A stretch of DNA of 64,000 bases. It comes from Pontibacter korlensis (lineage in GTDB: Bacteria; Bacteroidota; Bacteroidia; Cytophagales; Hymenobacteraceae). Position 1 is the first letter of the stretch, and each line of letters opens with the position of its first letter. Below the pieces are notes generated by a model that was not told the origin of the DNA, made no database searches, and saw only the letters and a list, made by a program, of their open reading frames with translations. The stretch covers positions 62,001-126,000 of the forward strand of contig NZ_CP009621.1 of NCBI RefSeq assembly GCF_000973725.1, in the 5' to 3' direction. Below, piece by piece: positions 25,456-36,772 of this stretch. Made by a program: the position numbers and the translations under genes.

Positions 25456-26757
25456 CTAGTACAGCAGGTTTTGCCAACATTCTTCGGCTTCTTCTACCAT
25501 ATCAGATTCTTTGAAATTCACATCGAAAAAGTTGAAGCCAATATCAATGGTAAGAGGTTTTTCACCTTCAAAGGAAAAGGTGTATAACTGCCCGTCAGTT
25601 GTCACTGACTGCAATTCACGCTGTTTGTTTGACTGTAAACTATCTGATGCTTCGTAGGCATAAGTAGTTACACGATAGCTTCTCCAGCATTTCATTTCAA
25701 ACCTTTTACGAGGAGCCTTGTCTGTCTTGTGGCCTGTTCGCAAATAATTCCAGAGCAAAAAACTTTCAGACGGTTCAAGCGTCAACACCTTACCAGCTTT
25801 CATGAAACCTAAGAATTCATAATCTAAAGGTGTTGCCTGACCCCATGCATTGACTTCTTCTAAATCGATTTGTTGATGAAGGAAGCGCAGGGGGATGTGA
25901 GCCCACACAAGCTCTTTAGGACCGGAGTTACCATAATCCCGGATAGTTTTATAAATCTTGCCATCTTTCACGAAAGTAACAACTATCGTCTCCATATGGT
26001 CCTCATTGTTTTCGAATTCAGTTGGAATACTGCTTACCGCGGCTCTTCTATAGTTATCCTGTAGTTCGGAATACAGTCTAGTGGGTATGGAGCCCAAGTA
26101 TATCCCCTCTTTTGTAGTGAAGTATTCTCCTATAAAAGACATTTTTCCTTCAGGAGTGACCATAGTGTTGGTTACAGGGCATCGACCATAGCAACCTAAA
26201 GTTGACAGAATGATGGCATCGAAAGTAGGGATTGTGTCTAAGTTATAGTATGCTCTTCTATAAAAATATATTCCTCCTTTACCCTTAATAGATAAGGTAT
26301 CATTTCTCAGGTAGTTGATAGCGAGGTTTTCCCATGTTGAGTCCGCAGGATTATAAATCTTGAGAGAGTCACCAGAGACAGTAAATTTTGTTTTGCTTCC
26401 TAAGTAGTGGATTTTCAAACGACCACTAGGGGTGTCACCTTCGGCTGGTGCTACTTTATAATACCCATGCTTGTTTTCGACTTCACTGTTAGCGTAAAAC
26501 GTGTAACCCTTCGGTATACAATCTTCTGTCAAATTTTCCGAAAAGAAAATTCCATTTGAGTGGCTACTGCTCACAAATCCCGCCGGCACCCAATCTCCTA
26601 TCAATTGCTCCTGCAGCCGCCTCTCCTGTTGGGTTGGCTCATCCTGTTTGGCATGGCAGGCAATTAACAGGAGCGGCAAGAAGTATATTGACACTCCTAC
26701 GCCTAAAGGCAGTAGGATTCTTGGGCTACCGAACCATTGTCCTTGTATATCTCCCAA
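25456..26757 (-). CDS. Lipoprotein with DUF6438-like domain, 5' end replaced by IS-derived DNA
   Basis: 433 aa from a TTG start lying inside a 98-bp IS605-type miniature element. The first ~23 residues are element sequence; the native part begins at IYFLPLLLIAC, whose cysteine is a lipobox. A CYGRCPVTNTMV stretch near residue 190 is the CxGxCP pattern I associate with DUF6438. Removing the element (26688-26785) joins GTGAAAAACTTCTTA (start 26801) to the gene and gives a 415-aa protein beginning (M)KNFLLYFLPLLLIAC, a perfect lipoprotein signal. From the old GTG the present frame hits a stop inside the element. Whether the TTG version is made or exported is open. Confidence 0.65.
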   Translation of the reverse strand: MGDIQGQWFGSPRILLPLGVGVSIYFLPLLLIACHAKQDEPTQQERRLQEQLIGDWVPAGFVSSSHSNGIFFSENLTEDCIPKGYTFYANSEVENKHGYYKVAPAEGDTPSGRLKIHYLGSKTKFTVSGDSLKIYNPADSTWENLAINYLRNDTLSIKGKGGIYFYRRAYYNLDTIPTFDAIILSTLGCYGRCPVTNTMVTPEGKMSFIGEYFTTKEGIYLGSIPTRLYSELQDNYRRAAVSSIPTEFENNEDHMETIVVTFVKDGKIYKTIRDYGNSGPKELVWAHIPLRFLHQQIDLEEVNAWGQATPLDYEFLGFMKAGKVLTLEPSESFLLWNYLRTGHKTDKAPRKRFEMKCWRSYRVTTYAYEASDSLQSNKQRELQSVTTDGQLYTFSFEGEKPLTIDIGFNFFDVNFKESDMVEEAEECWQNLLY

Positions 26758-26785
26758 GTGCGAGGGCTTTCTTTGGCATTTAATC
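26688..26785 (-). mobile_element. 98-bp IS200/IS605-type miniature element (LE joined to RE)
   Basis: On the minus strand the element follows TTAC and starts GATTAAATGCCAAAGAAAG, the same left end as the composite element at 36754 and very close to the full copy at 29705. After only 28 nt it passes into the right-end sequence TTGGGAGATATAC and a hairpin (CCTAC/GTAGG), ending with TCAA. No coding sequence remains. TTAC and TCAA are the cleavage sites known for IS608, so mobilisation in trans by TnpA is plausible. It lies in codon 6 of a lipoprotein gene. Confidence 0.85.
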
Positions 26786-29704: not shown

Positions 29705-29719
29705 GAGTAAATGCCAAAG

Positions 29720-29742
29720 AAAGCCCTCGCACTAGGGGCTTT
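29720..29742 (+). repeat. IS605 left-end hairpin
   Basis: AAAGCCC (29720-29726) pairs with GGGCTTT (29736-29742) around a 9-nt loop. Hairpins at this place are bound by TnpA in the IS200/IS605 family. A second hairpin (TTTTCCTTTTT with AAAAAGGAAAA, around 29762-29803) follows. Confidence 0.75.
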
Positions 29743-29848
29743 AGCCAAGGGATGAATTTGGTTTTCCTTTTTGAACCACTCGATGTGGTGAAAAAGGAAA
29801 ATACGTATACTGTTGACACTCTTATACCTTTCTTCTTATATTTATATG

Positions 29849-30249
29849 ATGAAAGAAGTCAAACCGAAACGCTGGAAAACTTCATCCACCTGGAGTCTAC
29901 AACATCGGCTACCATCTGATATGGTGTCCGAAGTTCAGACGAAAGGTGCTGACAGGTGCTATAGAACTTCGCCTGAAAGAACTGTTGATGGAGAAAGCTG
30001 GTGAGCTGGGATTAACTATCGAGAAAATGGAAGTGATGCCAGACCACGTTCACCTGCTGGTTAAAGCCTCACCAGCCGATGCACCGCAATTTATCGTGGC
30101 ACAACTGAAAGGGTACACATCATTCAAGCTACGCGGCGAGTTCCCCGAAACTGCCTACCCTGTGGACACGAAGCTACTACGCTGAGTCGGTGGGACATAT
30201 TTCAGAAACAACAGTGAAAAAGTACATAGAGGACCAGAAGAACCAGTGA
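29849..30249 (+). pseudogene. tnpA: IS200/IS605 transposase TnpA, two frameshifts
   Basis: Reassembled across frames it reads ...HPPGVYNIGYHLIWCPKFRRKV..., MPDHVHLLV (HUH metal motif), and SYYAESVGHISETTVKKYIEDQK with the catalytic tyrosine, i.e. a complete Y1 transposase of about 133 aa. One indel lies near 29852-29858 in an A-rich run just after the start; another near 30143-30146 in a C run between HUH and Tyr. The middle frame is the longest open stretch (29946-30185). The stop TGA overlaps the tnpB GTG start. Assembly error in homopolymers is an alternative. Confidence 0.8.
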
Positions 30250-31386
30250 ACCAGATCAAGACATACCGCTTCCGACTCAAACCCACCAGGGCGCAGGCTC
30301 AGGCTTTTGCTCAGTGGCTCGGTTCGTGCCGGTATGTCTACAACCTGTGTCTGGACTACAAGAGGCAACTCTGGACCAACTATCAAATCTCCGTATCGAA
30401 GAACCAGATGCAGCAAGAGCTTTCTGCTATCGCCAGGGAGGTCGGGTGGATTGGTTGCGTACACTCACAAACTTTACAGGAGGTGACAGATAGGTTGTTC
30501 AAATCCTACGATGGGTTTTTCAAGCAAGGCAAGGGATTCCCCAGGTTCGCCAAGCGAGGCCAGTATCGTTCATTCACCTTCAAGCAAGGTGTGAAACTAC
30601 ATGAGAACACCTGTACGGTACAACTACCAAAAATCGGGAAAGTCAAATACCGTAAGACACAGGATGTGCAGGGGGTTATCAAGACAGCAAGCATTGTCAA
30701 GGAAGCCGATGGATGGTATGTGACACTGTGCTGCCAGGTGGATATAACACCACTCCCACCAACCGATAGCGTGGTAGGTTTGGATGTTGGTGTCAAGTCC
30801 TTCGTCGTGACCTCAGACGGTCAGGTGGTGGACAACCCCAGGCACCTGTATCGCTACCAGTACCAGCTAAGGAAAGCGCAGCGTTCGGTCAGCAGGAAGA
30901 AGAAAGGTAGTAGTAACAGGCGAAAGGCTGCCGCAAAGCTGGCCAGGCTGCACCTGAAAGTCAGGAATACACGCAGGGACTTCCACCATAAACTCAGCAC
31001 GCAACTCATTCGCGAGAGCCAAGCGATTGTTGTTGAACAGCTTCAAATACAGCATATGCTCAAGAACCATAAACTTGCCAAAAGCATCAGCGATGCTGGG
31101 TGGTATCAGTTCGTGCAGATGCTGGAATACAAGTCCTGAGTGGTATGGTCGGGAGCTTATGAAGGTAGCCCCCCACCATACCTCCCAGGACTGCTGGGTT
31201 TGTGGTTGGCGAAATACTGAACTCAAATTATCGGACAGGTATTGGACCTGTGTTAACGGACACGTCCTGGACAGGGATGTGAACGCAGCTAGTAATATAA
31301 GAAATAAGGCGGTCGGGCAGACCGTTTCAGCTTGGGAGATATACAGTCGCAGTAGCCAGGTAGCCCAAGAATCCCACCTGCTTTAG
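30246..31386 (+). pseudogene. tnpB: RNA-guided nuclease-like TnpB, one frameshift
   Basis: From a GTG start overlapping tnpA. N-terminal TYRFRLKPTRAQAQAFAQWLGSCRYVYN and VVGLDVGVKSFVV (first RuvC Asp) and IVVEQLQIQHML (RuvC Glu) are in one frame up to a stop at 31139. The rest, with CWVCGWRNTELKLSDRYWTC (zinc finger) and HVLDRDVNAASNI (last RuvC Asp), is in another frame, so a single base change near 31131-31136 splits the gene. TnpB proteins of this family are omega-RNA-guided DNA nucleases; this copy would lack the last catalytic residue. Confidence 0.85.
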
Positions 31387-31394
31387 CGGTGGGA
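31372..31394 (+). repeat. IS605 right-end hairpin
   Basis: TCCCACC (31372-31378) pairs with GGTGGGA (31388-31394), four bases before the TCAA end. The tnpB 3' region and this hairpin are where omega-RNA is normally encoded; the guide would begin at 31402 (TAAAGACCGCC...). Confidence 0.7.
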
Positions 31395-31401
31395 ATGTCA
31401 A

Positions 31402-34673: not shown

Positions 34674-34800
34674 TTGACATTCCCACCGCTAAAGCAGATT
34701 GGATTCCTGGGCTACCTCGCTACTGCGACCGTATATCTCCCAAGGTACTGTCTTCAAAGTCAAGGATTTTGGTTGCATTTTTCTTACCTGTTTCTTATCT

Positions 34801-36012
34801 TCACTCTACCTGAAAGAGAGCTCCCGGGCCGACTGGTACTGGAAGTTCATCTTGCGTAGCCCTGGCCTGAGCTGGGGCTATTTCTTTTTCTGCTGTTTCT
34901 GGCTGCGTTTCCTGCGTTATTGCGTCTTTGTCAGCTGCGCTGACACCTGAAAGAGAGGCTCCGGCCTCCTGGATGTGGATGTTATTTTTGGGTTCCGCTG
35001 GCTGCTGCCCATAACGTGGATCATAGGCTTCATTCTTGCGCCACAGCGTCCAGAGCAGGATCAGCAGCTTGCGCTGTACGGCCACATAGGCCTGCATCTT
35101 GGTCTTGCCCCTTTTCACGAGCCGTTCGTAGAGAGCCACAAACCGGGGCTCCTGGAAGCGCACCGCGCTCAGGGCCGGCATGTGCATGGCCCGCCGGATG
35201 TGGGCATTGCCCTTCTTAGAGATACGGGTTCTGCCCGCGCGCAGGCCCGACTGGTGCTCCACCACGTCATAGCCGGCGTAGCTGACCAGCTGCCCCTGCC
35301 GCTCGAAGGTGGCAAAGCCGTTGGTCTCAGCCAGCAGCACGGCCACCGTCTTGAGGCCCACGCCTTTGATGGAGAGCATCTTGTCTACCCGCTCGGCCAG
35401 CAGCGGATCCTGGTAGAGCAGCTCCCCAATAGCCTCCTCCAGCTCCTGGAGGCTCTTGTCCAGGGTGCCGACCAGCTTCTGGAGGTTTCGCTCTACCTGC
35501 TTGACCACCAGCGCACCGTGATGCAGGGCATGGAGCTGGTTCAGGCACGCGGTGCGCTGATTGGTAAACTCCTCCAGCTGGCGGGTAAGCAGCCGCAGCT
35601 GGTAGATGTTGGGCGAGAGGGGCTGCCAGAGCTCCAGGAGCTGTTCCAGGCCCATTTGGGCCAGGCCTCTGGCGTCGATCTTGTCGTTCTTGCTCCTGTG
35701 GCCCAGGGCCTGCAGGTAGCGCTTGGCCTTGGTGGGCAATACGACCGAGACCTGGTAGCCCTGCTGGAAGAGAAACCAGGCCAGCTGCTCGTAGTACACG
35801 CCGGTGGCTTCCATCAGCAGGCGCAGCTCTACTTGTGCTGCGCGCTTGCTCTCCAGCCAGCGCTGCAGCTGTTTAAACCCAGCTGGGGTGTTGGCAAACT
35901 TGCGGGTGGCTTTTACCTTCACCCGCCGTTCCATCTCCAGGGTGGAGAAGGTCACCTCCAGGGAGTCTTTGCTCACATCAACTCCCACATTCTGGCAGAG
36001 TAAATTTTTCAT
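34801..36012 (-). CDS. IS110-family transposase (DEDD recombinase)
   Basis: 403 aa. The N-terminal RuvC-like DEDD domain shows NVGVDVSKDSLEV (first Asp), LLMEATGVYYEQLAWFL (Glu) and SKNDKIDARGLAQ (Asp pair). The C-terminal Tnp domain has LLSIKGVGLKTVAVLLAE and GYDVVEHQSGLR...ISKKGNAHIRRAMHM, which carries the catalytic serine region. The last ~70 residues are a low-complexity tail. Intact, so this element may be active. IS110 enzymes use a bridge RNA to choose target and donor. Confidence 0.92.
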   Translation of the reverse strand: MKNLLCQNVGVDVSKDSLEVTFSTLEMERRVKVKATRKFANTPAGFKQLQRWLESKRAAQVELRLLMEATGVYYEQLAWFLFQQGYQVSVVLPTKAKRYLQALGHRSKNDKIDARGLAQMGLEQLLELWQPLSPNIYQLRLLTRQLEEFTNQRTACLNQLHALHHGALVVKQVERNLQKLVGTLDKSLQELEEAIGELLYQDPLLAERVDKMLSIKGVGLKTVAVLLAETNGFATFERQGQLVSYAGYDVVEHQSGLRAGRTRISKKGNAHIRRAMHMPALSAVRFQEPRFVALYERLVKRGKTKMQAYVAVQRKLLILLWTLWRKNEAYDPRYGQQPAEPKNNIHIQEAGASLSGVSAADKDAITQETQPETAEKEIAPAQARATQDELPVPVGPGALFQVE

Positions 36013-36264
36013 AGCGGAAAGGGACTAAAATGGACAAAAGGTTCATCTTCCGGGCCTACGCTCACATCTGATACGAGGTCGTGCCTGCGGATGGGGCAGC
36101 CTCTAGGTACTGTGCTGGCTTTCAAGATGAAGAGAAAGGGAAGGGGTTCCTTGGGAGCGACATCTTAAAAGTGTCTAGCTGTCACACTTGTTCCTTCCCT
36201 TTCTCTTAGCTTACGGATAAGAGCCTGGTGAAATTGCACTTATCGGTATACTGCCAAAGATATG
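36013..36264 (-). ncRNA. Probable bridge-RNA region of IS110 element A
   Basis: Non-coding end upstream of the transposase. A 15-bp perfect stem (36130-36144 with 36193-36207) encloses 48 nt. The loop contains CTTGGGAG (36150-36157, plus strand) and AGCTG (36177-36181), matching the right and left halves of the target CAGCTTGGGAG in which the element sits. The homologous region of element B has the same 48-nt loop length and differs mainly in these two patches. Known IS110 bridge RNAs have a target loop with left and right guides. Transcription itself is not shown. Confidence 0.55.
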
Positions 36265-36360
36265 AGCTGAAACGGTCTGCCCGACCGCCTTATTTCTTAT
36301 ATTACTAGCTGCTGACGCATCCCGGTGCAGGGCATGTTTGCTGCAGCAAAGGTAACAGCC
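36265..36360 (-). pseudogene. tnpB: tnpB 3' fragment
   Basis: Translates as HRDASAASNIRNKAVGQTVSA, matching the C-terminus of the full TnpB copy (DRDVNAASNIRNKAVGQTVSA). It lies between the two IS110 copies and belongs to the IS605 remnant. Confidence 0.8.
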
Positions 36361-36427
36361 GGCAAGTGCAGGCGGTAGAACATAGGGTAAGATCGAACCC
36401 AACAAAAGTGAAGGAATGTCGCACCAC

Positions 36428-36725
36428 ATCCAGAGCGTCTTTGCCCACATCGACGCCCAGGTTCTGACAGAGTAAATTTTTCATAGCTGAAAGGGACTAA
36501 AGTGGACAAAAAACATTCATCTTCCGGGCCTACACTCACTCATGCCTGCGGATGGGGCAGCCGCTAGGTACTGTCCAGGCTTTTAAGAAGAAGAGAAAGG
36601 GAAGGGATTCCTTGGTGGCGACATCATCAAAGTGTCTAGTGCAAGGGCTTTCTCCTTCCCTTTCTGTTAGCTTACGTTTAAGAGCCTGATAAAATTGCAC
36701 ATACGCTTATACTGCCAAAGATATA
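36428..36725 (-). mobile_element. Truncated IS110-family element B
   Basis: The first codons of a transposase (MKNLLCQNLGVDVGKDALDV, from 36484) match element A and then break off near 36428. Upstream, 36485-36725 is a diverged copy of the A non-coding end with a 12-bp stem (36594-36605 with 36654-36665) around a 48-nt loop. The outer boundary joins the IS605 left end at the core AG/CT (36726-36727). Confidence 0.8.
36485..36725 (-). ncRNA. Probable bridge-RNA region of truncated IS110 element B
   Basis: The loop segment AGTGCAAGGGCTTTCT (36638-36653) matches the adjacent target AGTGCCAGGGCTTTCT (36726-36741) at 15 of 16 positions; the target is the IS605-family left end. The corresponding patch in element A is unrelated, while the surrounding scaffold is conserved between the two copies. 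That is what a guide sequence would show. Confidence 0.5.
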
Positions 36726-36754
36726 AGTGCCAGGGCTTTCTTTGGCATTTAATC

Positions 36755-36772
36755 GTAAGGCTTTGTTTTCAT
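36755..36772 (-). pseudogene. Detached first six codons of the TPR protein gene
   Basis: ATG AAA ACA AAG CCT TAC, ending with the TTAC target of the IS605 insertion. It joins in frame to CTG CTG AGC at 34673 to make the signal peptide MKTKPYLLSLLLFF. Confidence 0.75.

What the first reader, a model, noticed from the sequence alone, without database searches (positions are those of the whole stretch)
36130..36741. Bridge-RNA guides that can be read by eye in two IS110 elements
Both copies have the same hairpin with a 48-nt loop. Loop positions 11-12 and 35-48 vary while the rest is mostly constant. In B, 36638-36653 matches the flanking target 36726-36741 at 15 of 16 bases. In A, CTTGGGAG (36150-36157) matches the right flank and CAGCT (reverse of 36177-36181) the left flank of target CAGCTTGGGAG. 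Both sites share the CT core. The arrangement (one guide matching each strand side) fits the published IS621 bridge-RNA model. A's left guide is short (5 contiguous bases).
Basis: partly seen in the sequence, partly recalled or inferred. Interest (0 to 1): 0.82.

Follow-up and report, generated by a model that had tools for sequence, protein, structure and literature searches.

The report
IS110 bridge-RNA guides aimed at IS605
The window carries a jumping gene of the IS110 kind whose own predicted small RNA appears to spell out where it lands, and its two guide versions both point at parts of one other jumping gene (an IS605/TnpB transposon), which fits a recently published mechanism.

Summary
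The bridge-RNA reading survives testing. In 48 IS110 elements, own guides match own targets far better than swapped ones (0 of 20,000 permutations). The guide register is about 9 nt left and 7 nt right, core CT included; A scores 7/9 + 7/7. Left donor guides follow the donor end (47 of 48), the loop stems covary, and joined ends resemble a Bacteroidota promoter (43 of 48). The enzyme matches IS621/ISCro4 with DEDD and Ser.

Corrections: B is no second IS110 element. It is a truncated IS110 left end inside an IS605-type transposon; its 'target flank' is that transposon's left end. That sequence exists without IS110 elsewhere in the genome, so it is no local duplication; but most B copies probably spread by IS605 transposition and are not independent insertions. 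A sits in the tnpB 3' end of the same transposon family. So two guide sets aim at two sites of one RNA-guided transposon, with chimeras and possibly guide-directed deletions. Known mechanism, new members, unusual targets. No RNA or activity was measured.

The parts
34745..36264 (-). IS110 element A (left end at 36264, right end GTAC at 34745); core CT on both sides (36265-36266 and 34743-34744)
   Evidence: ends shared by copies with different flanks
34801..36012 (-). 403-aa IS110 recombinase; D12, E68, D110, D113 and Ser265 at the places of the IS110 active site
   Evidence: Pfam DEDD_Tnp_IS110 and Transposase_20; ISCro4 1.4e-38, IS621 1e-33; positions; IS621 residues
36061..36262 (-). predicted bridge RNA of A (ends inferred, not measured)
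   Evidence: z = -3.68 against shuffles; covariation
36193..36207 (-). A target-binding loop, 5' arm of outer stem
   Evidence: 15-bp stem
36130..36144 (-). A target-binding loop, 3' arm of outer stem
   Evidence: 15-bp stem
36177..36185 (-). A left target guide in register, GTGACAGCT; 7 of 9 match the left target
36150..36156 (-). A right target guide in register, TCCCAAG; 7 of 7 (8 contiguous with the next base)
36103..36114 (-). A left donor guide, contains ACAGTACCT = right end of the element plus core
36061..36068 (-). A right donor guide GATGTGAG, could pair with CTCATATC of the left end with one G.T
   Evidence: sequence; motif TGAG; position
36265..36275 (-). A left target (tnpB 3' end of the IS605-type unit), CCGTTTCAGCT
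   Evidence: unoccupied copies
34737..34744 (-). A right target CTTGGGAG
   Evidence: unoccupied copies
34674..36754 (-). chimeric IS605-type non-autonomous unit (TTAC at 36755-36758) that contains the B remnant and, inserted in it, IS110 A
36421..36725 (-). B: truncated IS110 left end with bridge-RNA gene and first codons of the recombinase (inner border approximate)
36638..36653 (-). B left target guide AGAAAGCCCTTGCACT (register part 36638-36646)
36611..36617 (-). B right target guide CACCAAG (B's own right target is lost)
36564..36575 (-). B left donor guide
36533..36545 (-). B right donor guide region
   Evidence: same motif in L036
36726..36741 (-). B left target = part of the left end of the IS605-type transposon
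   Evidence: 15/16 to guide; unoccupied copies
29705..31401 (+). IS605-type element with both target sites unoccupied (left-end site 29719-29742, one base off the usual; tnpB 3' site 31322-31344); tnpA and tnpB frames
   Evidence: Pfam Y1_Tnp, OrfB_IS605, Cas12f1-like_TNB; sites
26688..26785 (-). fusion MITE: left part of the left-end target joined at CTTGGG to the tnpB 3' site

Best explanation
A is an IS110-group insertion sequence of a Pontibacter-type bacterium. Its left end encodes a predicted bridge RNA with a target-binding and a donor-binding loop. After the element circularises, a Bacteroidota-type promoter across the RE-CT-LE junction (TTG, 20 nt, TAnnTTTG) would drive the RNA (inferred). 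The left guide pairs with the bottom strand over about 9 nt ending with CT, the right guide with the top strand over CT plus 5 nt, and the 403-aa recombinase joins target and donor at CT (inferred from homology). A's guides select the tnpB 3' end of an IS605-type transposon; B-type guides select that transposon's left end. B in the window is a relic of such an insertion, later carried and copied as part of the IS605 unit (inferred).
For: Guide/target matching: 48 pairs, summed longest matches 13.46 cognate against 9.67 non-cognate, 0 of 20,000 permutations reach it; 28 pairs of the closer clade 13.86 against 9.60, 0 of 20,000. Register edge sharp at right position 7/8 (0.65 to 0.21), left fading after -9. 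Left donor guide agrees with the right end (GTAC/GTAT) in 47 of 48, one without a hit; right donor motif as expected in 38 of 48. Stems: 91.4% of cells paired, covariation 0.757 against 0.291 in shuffles (0 of 500 reach it) and at most 0.179 when slid. Outer stem 10.0 against 7.1 bp for swapped arms, 0 of 10,000. Enzyme. Junction motif 43 of 48. Unoccupied B-type targets 9 exact, A targets 36 exact. A lies in four contexts, two of them similar tnpB copies; five B-type copies keep both IS110 ends (one of them internally deleted) and show target variants CG/GGGGC twice, AA/GGGGC, AA/GGGGA, AA/GGGTC.
Against: No RNA or recombination data. The cognate pair is strictly best in only 18 of 48 rows (28 with ties); related elements make the permutations no true probability. 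No site within 2 mismatches of A's full guide pair AGTGTGACAGCTTGGGAG exists in the genome. 20 of 28 B-type left ends share the GG target variant and look like copies of one unit. The right donor motif was missing in 5 of 48 and another motif was found in 5, 3 of which would need TAAG, which I did not look for; in L194 the expected letters are at another place. B's RNA folds only weakly better than shuffles (z -1.44). The junction motif has no control and the elements are related.
Confidence: 0.93

Rival explanations
1. The B match is only shared descent: guide and flank are similar because the whole unit was copied together, so it says nothing about targeting.
For: The 28 B-type left ends carry the same IS605 tip next to TTAC; B lies in a chimeric unit; 7 of 28 have lost the guide loop and 2 more are altered in it, so they can be copied without it.
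Against: The target occurs without IS110 in other IS605 copies, five B-type copies with both ends match on both sides, and unrelated guide/target pairs in relatives behave the same.
Confidence: 0.05
2. The protein recognises a palindrome or fold at the target, and the loop similarity is incidental.
For: The commonest form of B's target holds a 7-bp inverted repeat, and several relatives sit at palindrome-like sites by eye.
Against: The IS605 left end does not fold better than shuffles (z -0.42 and -0.26). A, L041, L120, L118 and others sit at different linear sequences that their loops carry; the match stops at the guide edge.
Confidence: 0.03
3. The four fusion MITEs (left-end target joined to the tnpB 3' site) arose by microhomology deletion, not by the recombinase.
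For: The sites share CTTGGG, and other IS605 derivatives here have deletions with short GGG homology away from the core.
Against: The four junctions fall exactly at the two IS110 targets, in three flank combinations, and a hybrid IS110 copy with B-type left flank and A-type right flank exists (L035).
Confidence: 0.55

Closest known systems
IS621 (IS110 group) bridge RNA
   Same: RNA in the left end, two loops, left guide pairs bottom strand, right guide pairs top strand, CT core, DEDD + Ser enzyme (sections of PMC11208160; passages of PMC11208158; here)
   Different: right guide register 7 nt against 4 in IS621 itself, which is within the 4-7 nt published for the group; Bacteroidota-type junction motif; 403 against 328 aa; no Rfam match. 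IS621 goes to REP sequences (title in the reference list), this one to IS605 sequence
ISCro4
   Same: best PDB sequence match to the enzyme, 1.4e-38
   Different: its RNA was not compared here
IS1111 group (seekRNA; IS4321/IS5075 in Tn21 ends, IS1111-attC)
   Same: RNA-guided choice of sites, some of them in other mobile elements (passages of PMC11187229)
   Different: IS1111 members mostly carry the RNA in the right end and have longer subterminal inverted repeats; here the RNA is in the left end
IS200/IS605 (Y1 TnpA, TnpB)
   Same: the transposon that holds both insertions: TTAC flank, Y1_Tnp, OrfB_IS605
   Different: it is the target and carrier, not the IS110 itself

Membership tests
IS110 group / bridge RNA | DEDD RuvC-like and Tnp domains with catalytic Ser | tested here: met
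IS110 group / bridge RNA | long non-coding left end, short right end | tested here: met
   left end 252 bp before the start codon, right end 56 bp after the stop
IS110 group / bridge RNA | two loops with conserved stems | tested here: met
   18 of the 28 closer elements aligned: 16 pairs, covariation above all 500 shuffles; outer stem
IS110 group / bridge RNA | left and right target guides match the target | tested here: met
IS110 group / bridge RNA | left and right donor guides match the donor ends | tested here: met
   left 47 of 48; right 38 of 48
IS110 group / bridge RNA | core dinucleotide shared by target and donor | tested here: met
   CT on both sides of A and of the 5 B-type copies that keep both ends; some relatives show other letters on one side
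IS110 group / bridge RNA | RNA expressed from the circle junction | tested here: inconclusive
   promoter-like motif only, 43 of 48, no control; no expression data
IS110 group / bridge RNA | RNA-dependent recombination | not testable with these tools
   needs an assay
IS1111 group | RNA in a long right end | tested here: not met
   right end is 56 bp
IS200/IS605, as the unit that carries B | TTAC flank and, in fuller copies, Y1 and TnpB genes | tested here: met
   (Pfam on the window copy)
IS200/IS605, as the unit that carries B | subterminal hairpin at the left end | tested here: inconclusive
   7-bp inverted repeat in the window copy, not better than shuffles; the L139 form folds otherwise

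The most novel reading that the evidence does not exclude
One RNA-guided element family has re-aimed its bridge RNA at two sites of a second RNA-guided element (an IS605/TnpB transposon), and its recombinase then uses the two sites to delete the transposon's interior, so that bridge RNAs shape the birth of chimeric elements and MITEs that carry the ends of both.
Probability: 0.3. Interest if true: 0.62.

Novelty: new member of a known kind. Interest (0 to 1): 0.45.

Why it matters
It gives sequence evidence for bridge RNAs in 48 elements of the order of the window's host, with a clear guide register and a Bacteroidota-type junction motif. It offers two natural enzymes, 91% identical, with two guide sets and known targets in one genome: a ready test of reprogramming. 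It also shows RNA-guided elements nesting in one another, with consequences for how defective transposons arise.

Tried and rejected
Rfam at gathering thresholds: no match in the window, which only says that no curated family covers this RNA. A's full guide pair was sought in the genome and not found within 2 mismatches (one hit at 3, three control hits). A first regular expression for B copies gave 0 because a spacer length was wrong and was corrected. MAFFT did not align the outer loop stem, so it was tested by swapping arms. I first called the IS605 left end a hairpin by eye; the fold does not beat shuffles, so I dropped the word. The idea that B's 16-nt match is a special long guide was dropped: the register of the 48 pairs ends near -9 to -11, so the further matches are probably chance. 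Literature: the listings showed no title or abstract on an IS110 aimed at IS605 ends or on IS110 in Pontibacter (0 papers); one search was too broad to inform. The library lacks most subscription papers and holds no preprints. Of PMC11208160 I saw the outline, three sections and passages; of PMC11208158, PMC11187229 and PMC7366714 passages only.

Full report
What is in the window. On the minus strand lies an IS110 element (A, 34745-36264) with a 403-aa recombinase (Pfam). Its best solved relatives by sequence are ISCro4 (1.4e-38) and IS621 (1e-33); D12, E68, D110, D113 and Ser265 stand where IS621 has D11, E60, D102, D105 and S241 (passages of PMC11208158; the match of places is read from the ISCro4 alignment). 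The host genus is inferred: same-genus genomes G040, G027 and G029 have contigs of the same length as named Pontibacter records.

The loops. Read on the minus strand as RNA, each is a target-binding loop: outer stem, left guide, small apical stem, right guide. [quoted passage not shown]

More copies. Among the matches (40 of 70 candidates scored) 33 are left ends: 4 A-type, 1 hybrid, 28 B-type. The 28 B-type ends are preceded by the same tip, TTAC then about 33 bases ending AAAGAAAGC..T..CACT. Five keep an IS110 right end (one internally deleted) and continue CT-TGGG[GT][CA]TTTAGCC. The sequence left plus right exists without IS110 in 9 exact places (8 more with one mismatch, two of which lack the IS605 body or were not looked at further) and is the left end of an IS605-type transposon. 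A's flanks are the tnpB 3' end of the same family, with 36 exact unoccupied sites. A fuller IS605 copy with both sites unoccupied is in the window (29705-31401), its left-end site one base off.

What B is. B in the window is a short IS110 left end fused to IS605 sequence. Of 28 B-type ends, 7 have lost the guide loop and 2 are altered in it; an IS605 right end (GTCAA) was found within 1.9 kb in 21 of 28, with different flanks outside. Spread by the IS605 transposase is the likely cause (inference). So B's match is a fossil of targeting, not an independent second event. A sits inside this same unit.

Statistics. Of 59 loci tried, 51 gave both ends by motif (8 did not); one more was dropped for lack of a left end and two were duplicates, leaving 48, A and two B-type copies among them. 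Own guides against own targets: longest matches 7.15 (left) and 6.31 (right) against 4.89 and 4.78 for swapped; 0 of 20,000 permutations reach the observed mean in any of six measures. By summed longest match the own pair is strictly best in 18 of 48 rows and best or tied in 28. With short seeds to place the guide, unseeded positions match at 0.62, 0.58, 0.52 for -7 to -9 and 0.69, 0.69, 0.65 for right positions 5-7, then 0.21. In this register A scores 7/9 and 7/7, the B-type copy L036 8/9 and 7/7.

Donor side. The right end reads GTAC in 30 and GTAT in 18 elements; the RNA carries the same letters in 47, and one had no hit. The change largely follows clades, so it is few events. The right donor motif follows the left end (TGAG, CGAG, CAAG) in 38 of 48; 5 had none and 5 another motif.

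RNA structure and promoter. RNAalifold on 18 of the 28 closer elements gives 16 pairs in two stems, the apical stem of the target loop and a stem in the donor loop. 91.4% of cells pair, and the covariation score is 0.757 against 0.291 in shuffles (0 of 500 reach it) and at most 0.179 when the partner is slid (the structure was derived from this alignment). A's RNA folds better than shuffles (z -3.68), B's hardly (z -1.44). The joined ends show TTG, 20 nt, TAnnTTTG with at most one mismatch in TTTG in 43 of 48 (TAnnTTTG exact in 17). TAnnTTTG at -7 and TTTG near -33 is the B. fragilis consensus, though the -33 part was not found in Flavobacterium (passage of PMC7366714).

Other guides worth naming. 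L041/L042 (59% identity) and L119 sit on a T run; for L041 the flanking genes are IS3-like (HTH_Tnp_1 above its cut-off, rve and HTH_21 below theirs), and both right guides carry the matching A run. L121 sits, by eye, in another IS110 left end. L120, L118 and L051 match on both sides at other sites.

Fusions. Four places join the left part of the left-end target to the tnpB 3' site exactly at CTTGGG, one in this window. A hybrid IS110 copy (L035) has a B-type left flank and an A-type right flank; its precise excision would give such a fusion. The shared CTTGGG also allows plain microhomology deletion, and other deletions here are not at the core. I leave this open, leaning to microhomology. 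L035 has itself apparently lost its left end by a deletion between target and guide, which are near-repeats.

A re-formed hairpin. The insertion puts the IS110 left end (CTTTGGC...) next to the IS605 tip (...GCCAAAG). In L023 the two form a hairpin of over 20 bp (z -9.36). Whether this gives the IS605 transposase an end to recognise is untested.

Verdict. The mechanism is known; these are new members with strong sequence support, in an unusual relation to an IS605 transposon. The named paper searches listed nothing on this combination (see Tried and rejected).

Noticed in passing
window 26688-26785: Fusion MITE of the IS605-type transposon whose junction falls exactly at the two IS110 target sites; three more in the genome (L181-L183).
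   Followed up: partly
window 29705-31401: IS605-type element whose tnpA and tnpB each appear split over frames, so it is probably broken.
   Followed up: no
L035 (G000:C1:11120-15328): IS110 copy that apparently lost its left end by deletion between its target and its own guide (near-identical 16-mers), with a B-type loop and an A-type right flank.
   Followed up: partly
L041, L042, L119: IS110 relatives inserted at a T run, for L041 in IS3-like genes, perhaps the orfA/orfB frameshift run (that label is recalled); the right guide carries the matching A run.
   Followed up: partly
L121, L122: IS110 copies that sit, by eye, in the left end of another IS110; L121's left guide matches CAGTACT there.
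   Followed up: partly
48 elements, RE-CT-LE junction: Right and left ends together keep TTG and TAnnTTTG (at most one mismatch) at a spacing of 20 nt in 43 of 48, a Bacteroidota-type promoter motif across the circle junction.
   Followed up: yes
L023 (G000:C1:5201290): IS605 tip and IS110 left end form a hairpin of over 20 bp across the insertion point (z -9.36), perhaps a new recognisable end for the IS605 transposase.
   Followed up: partly
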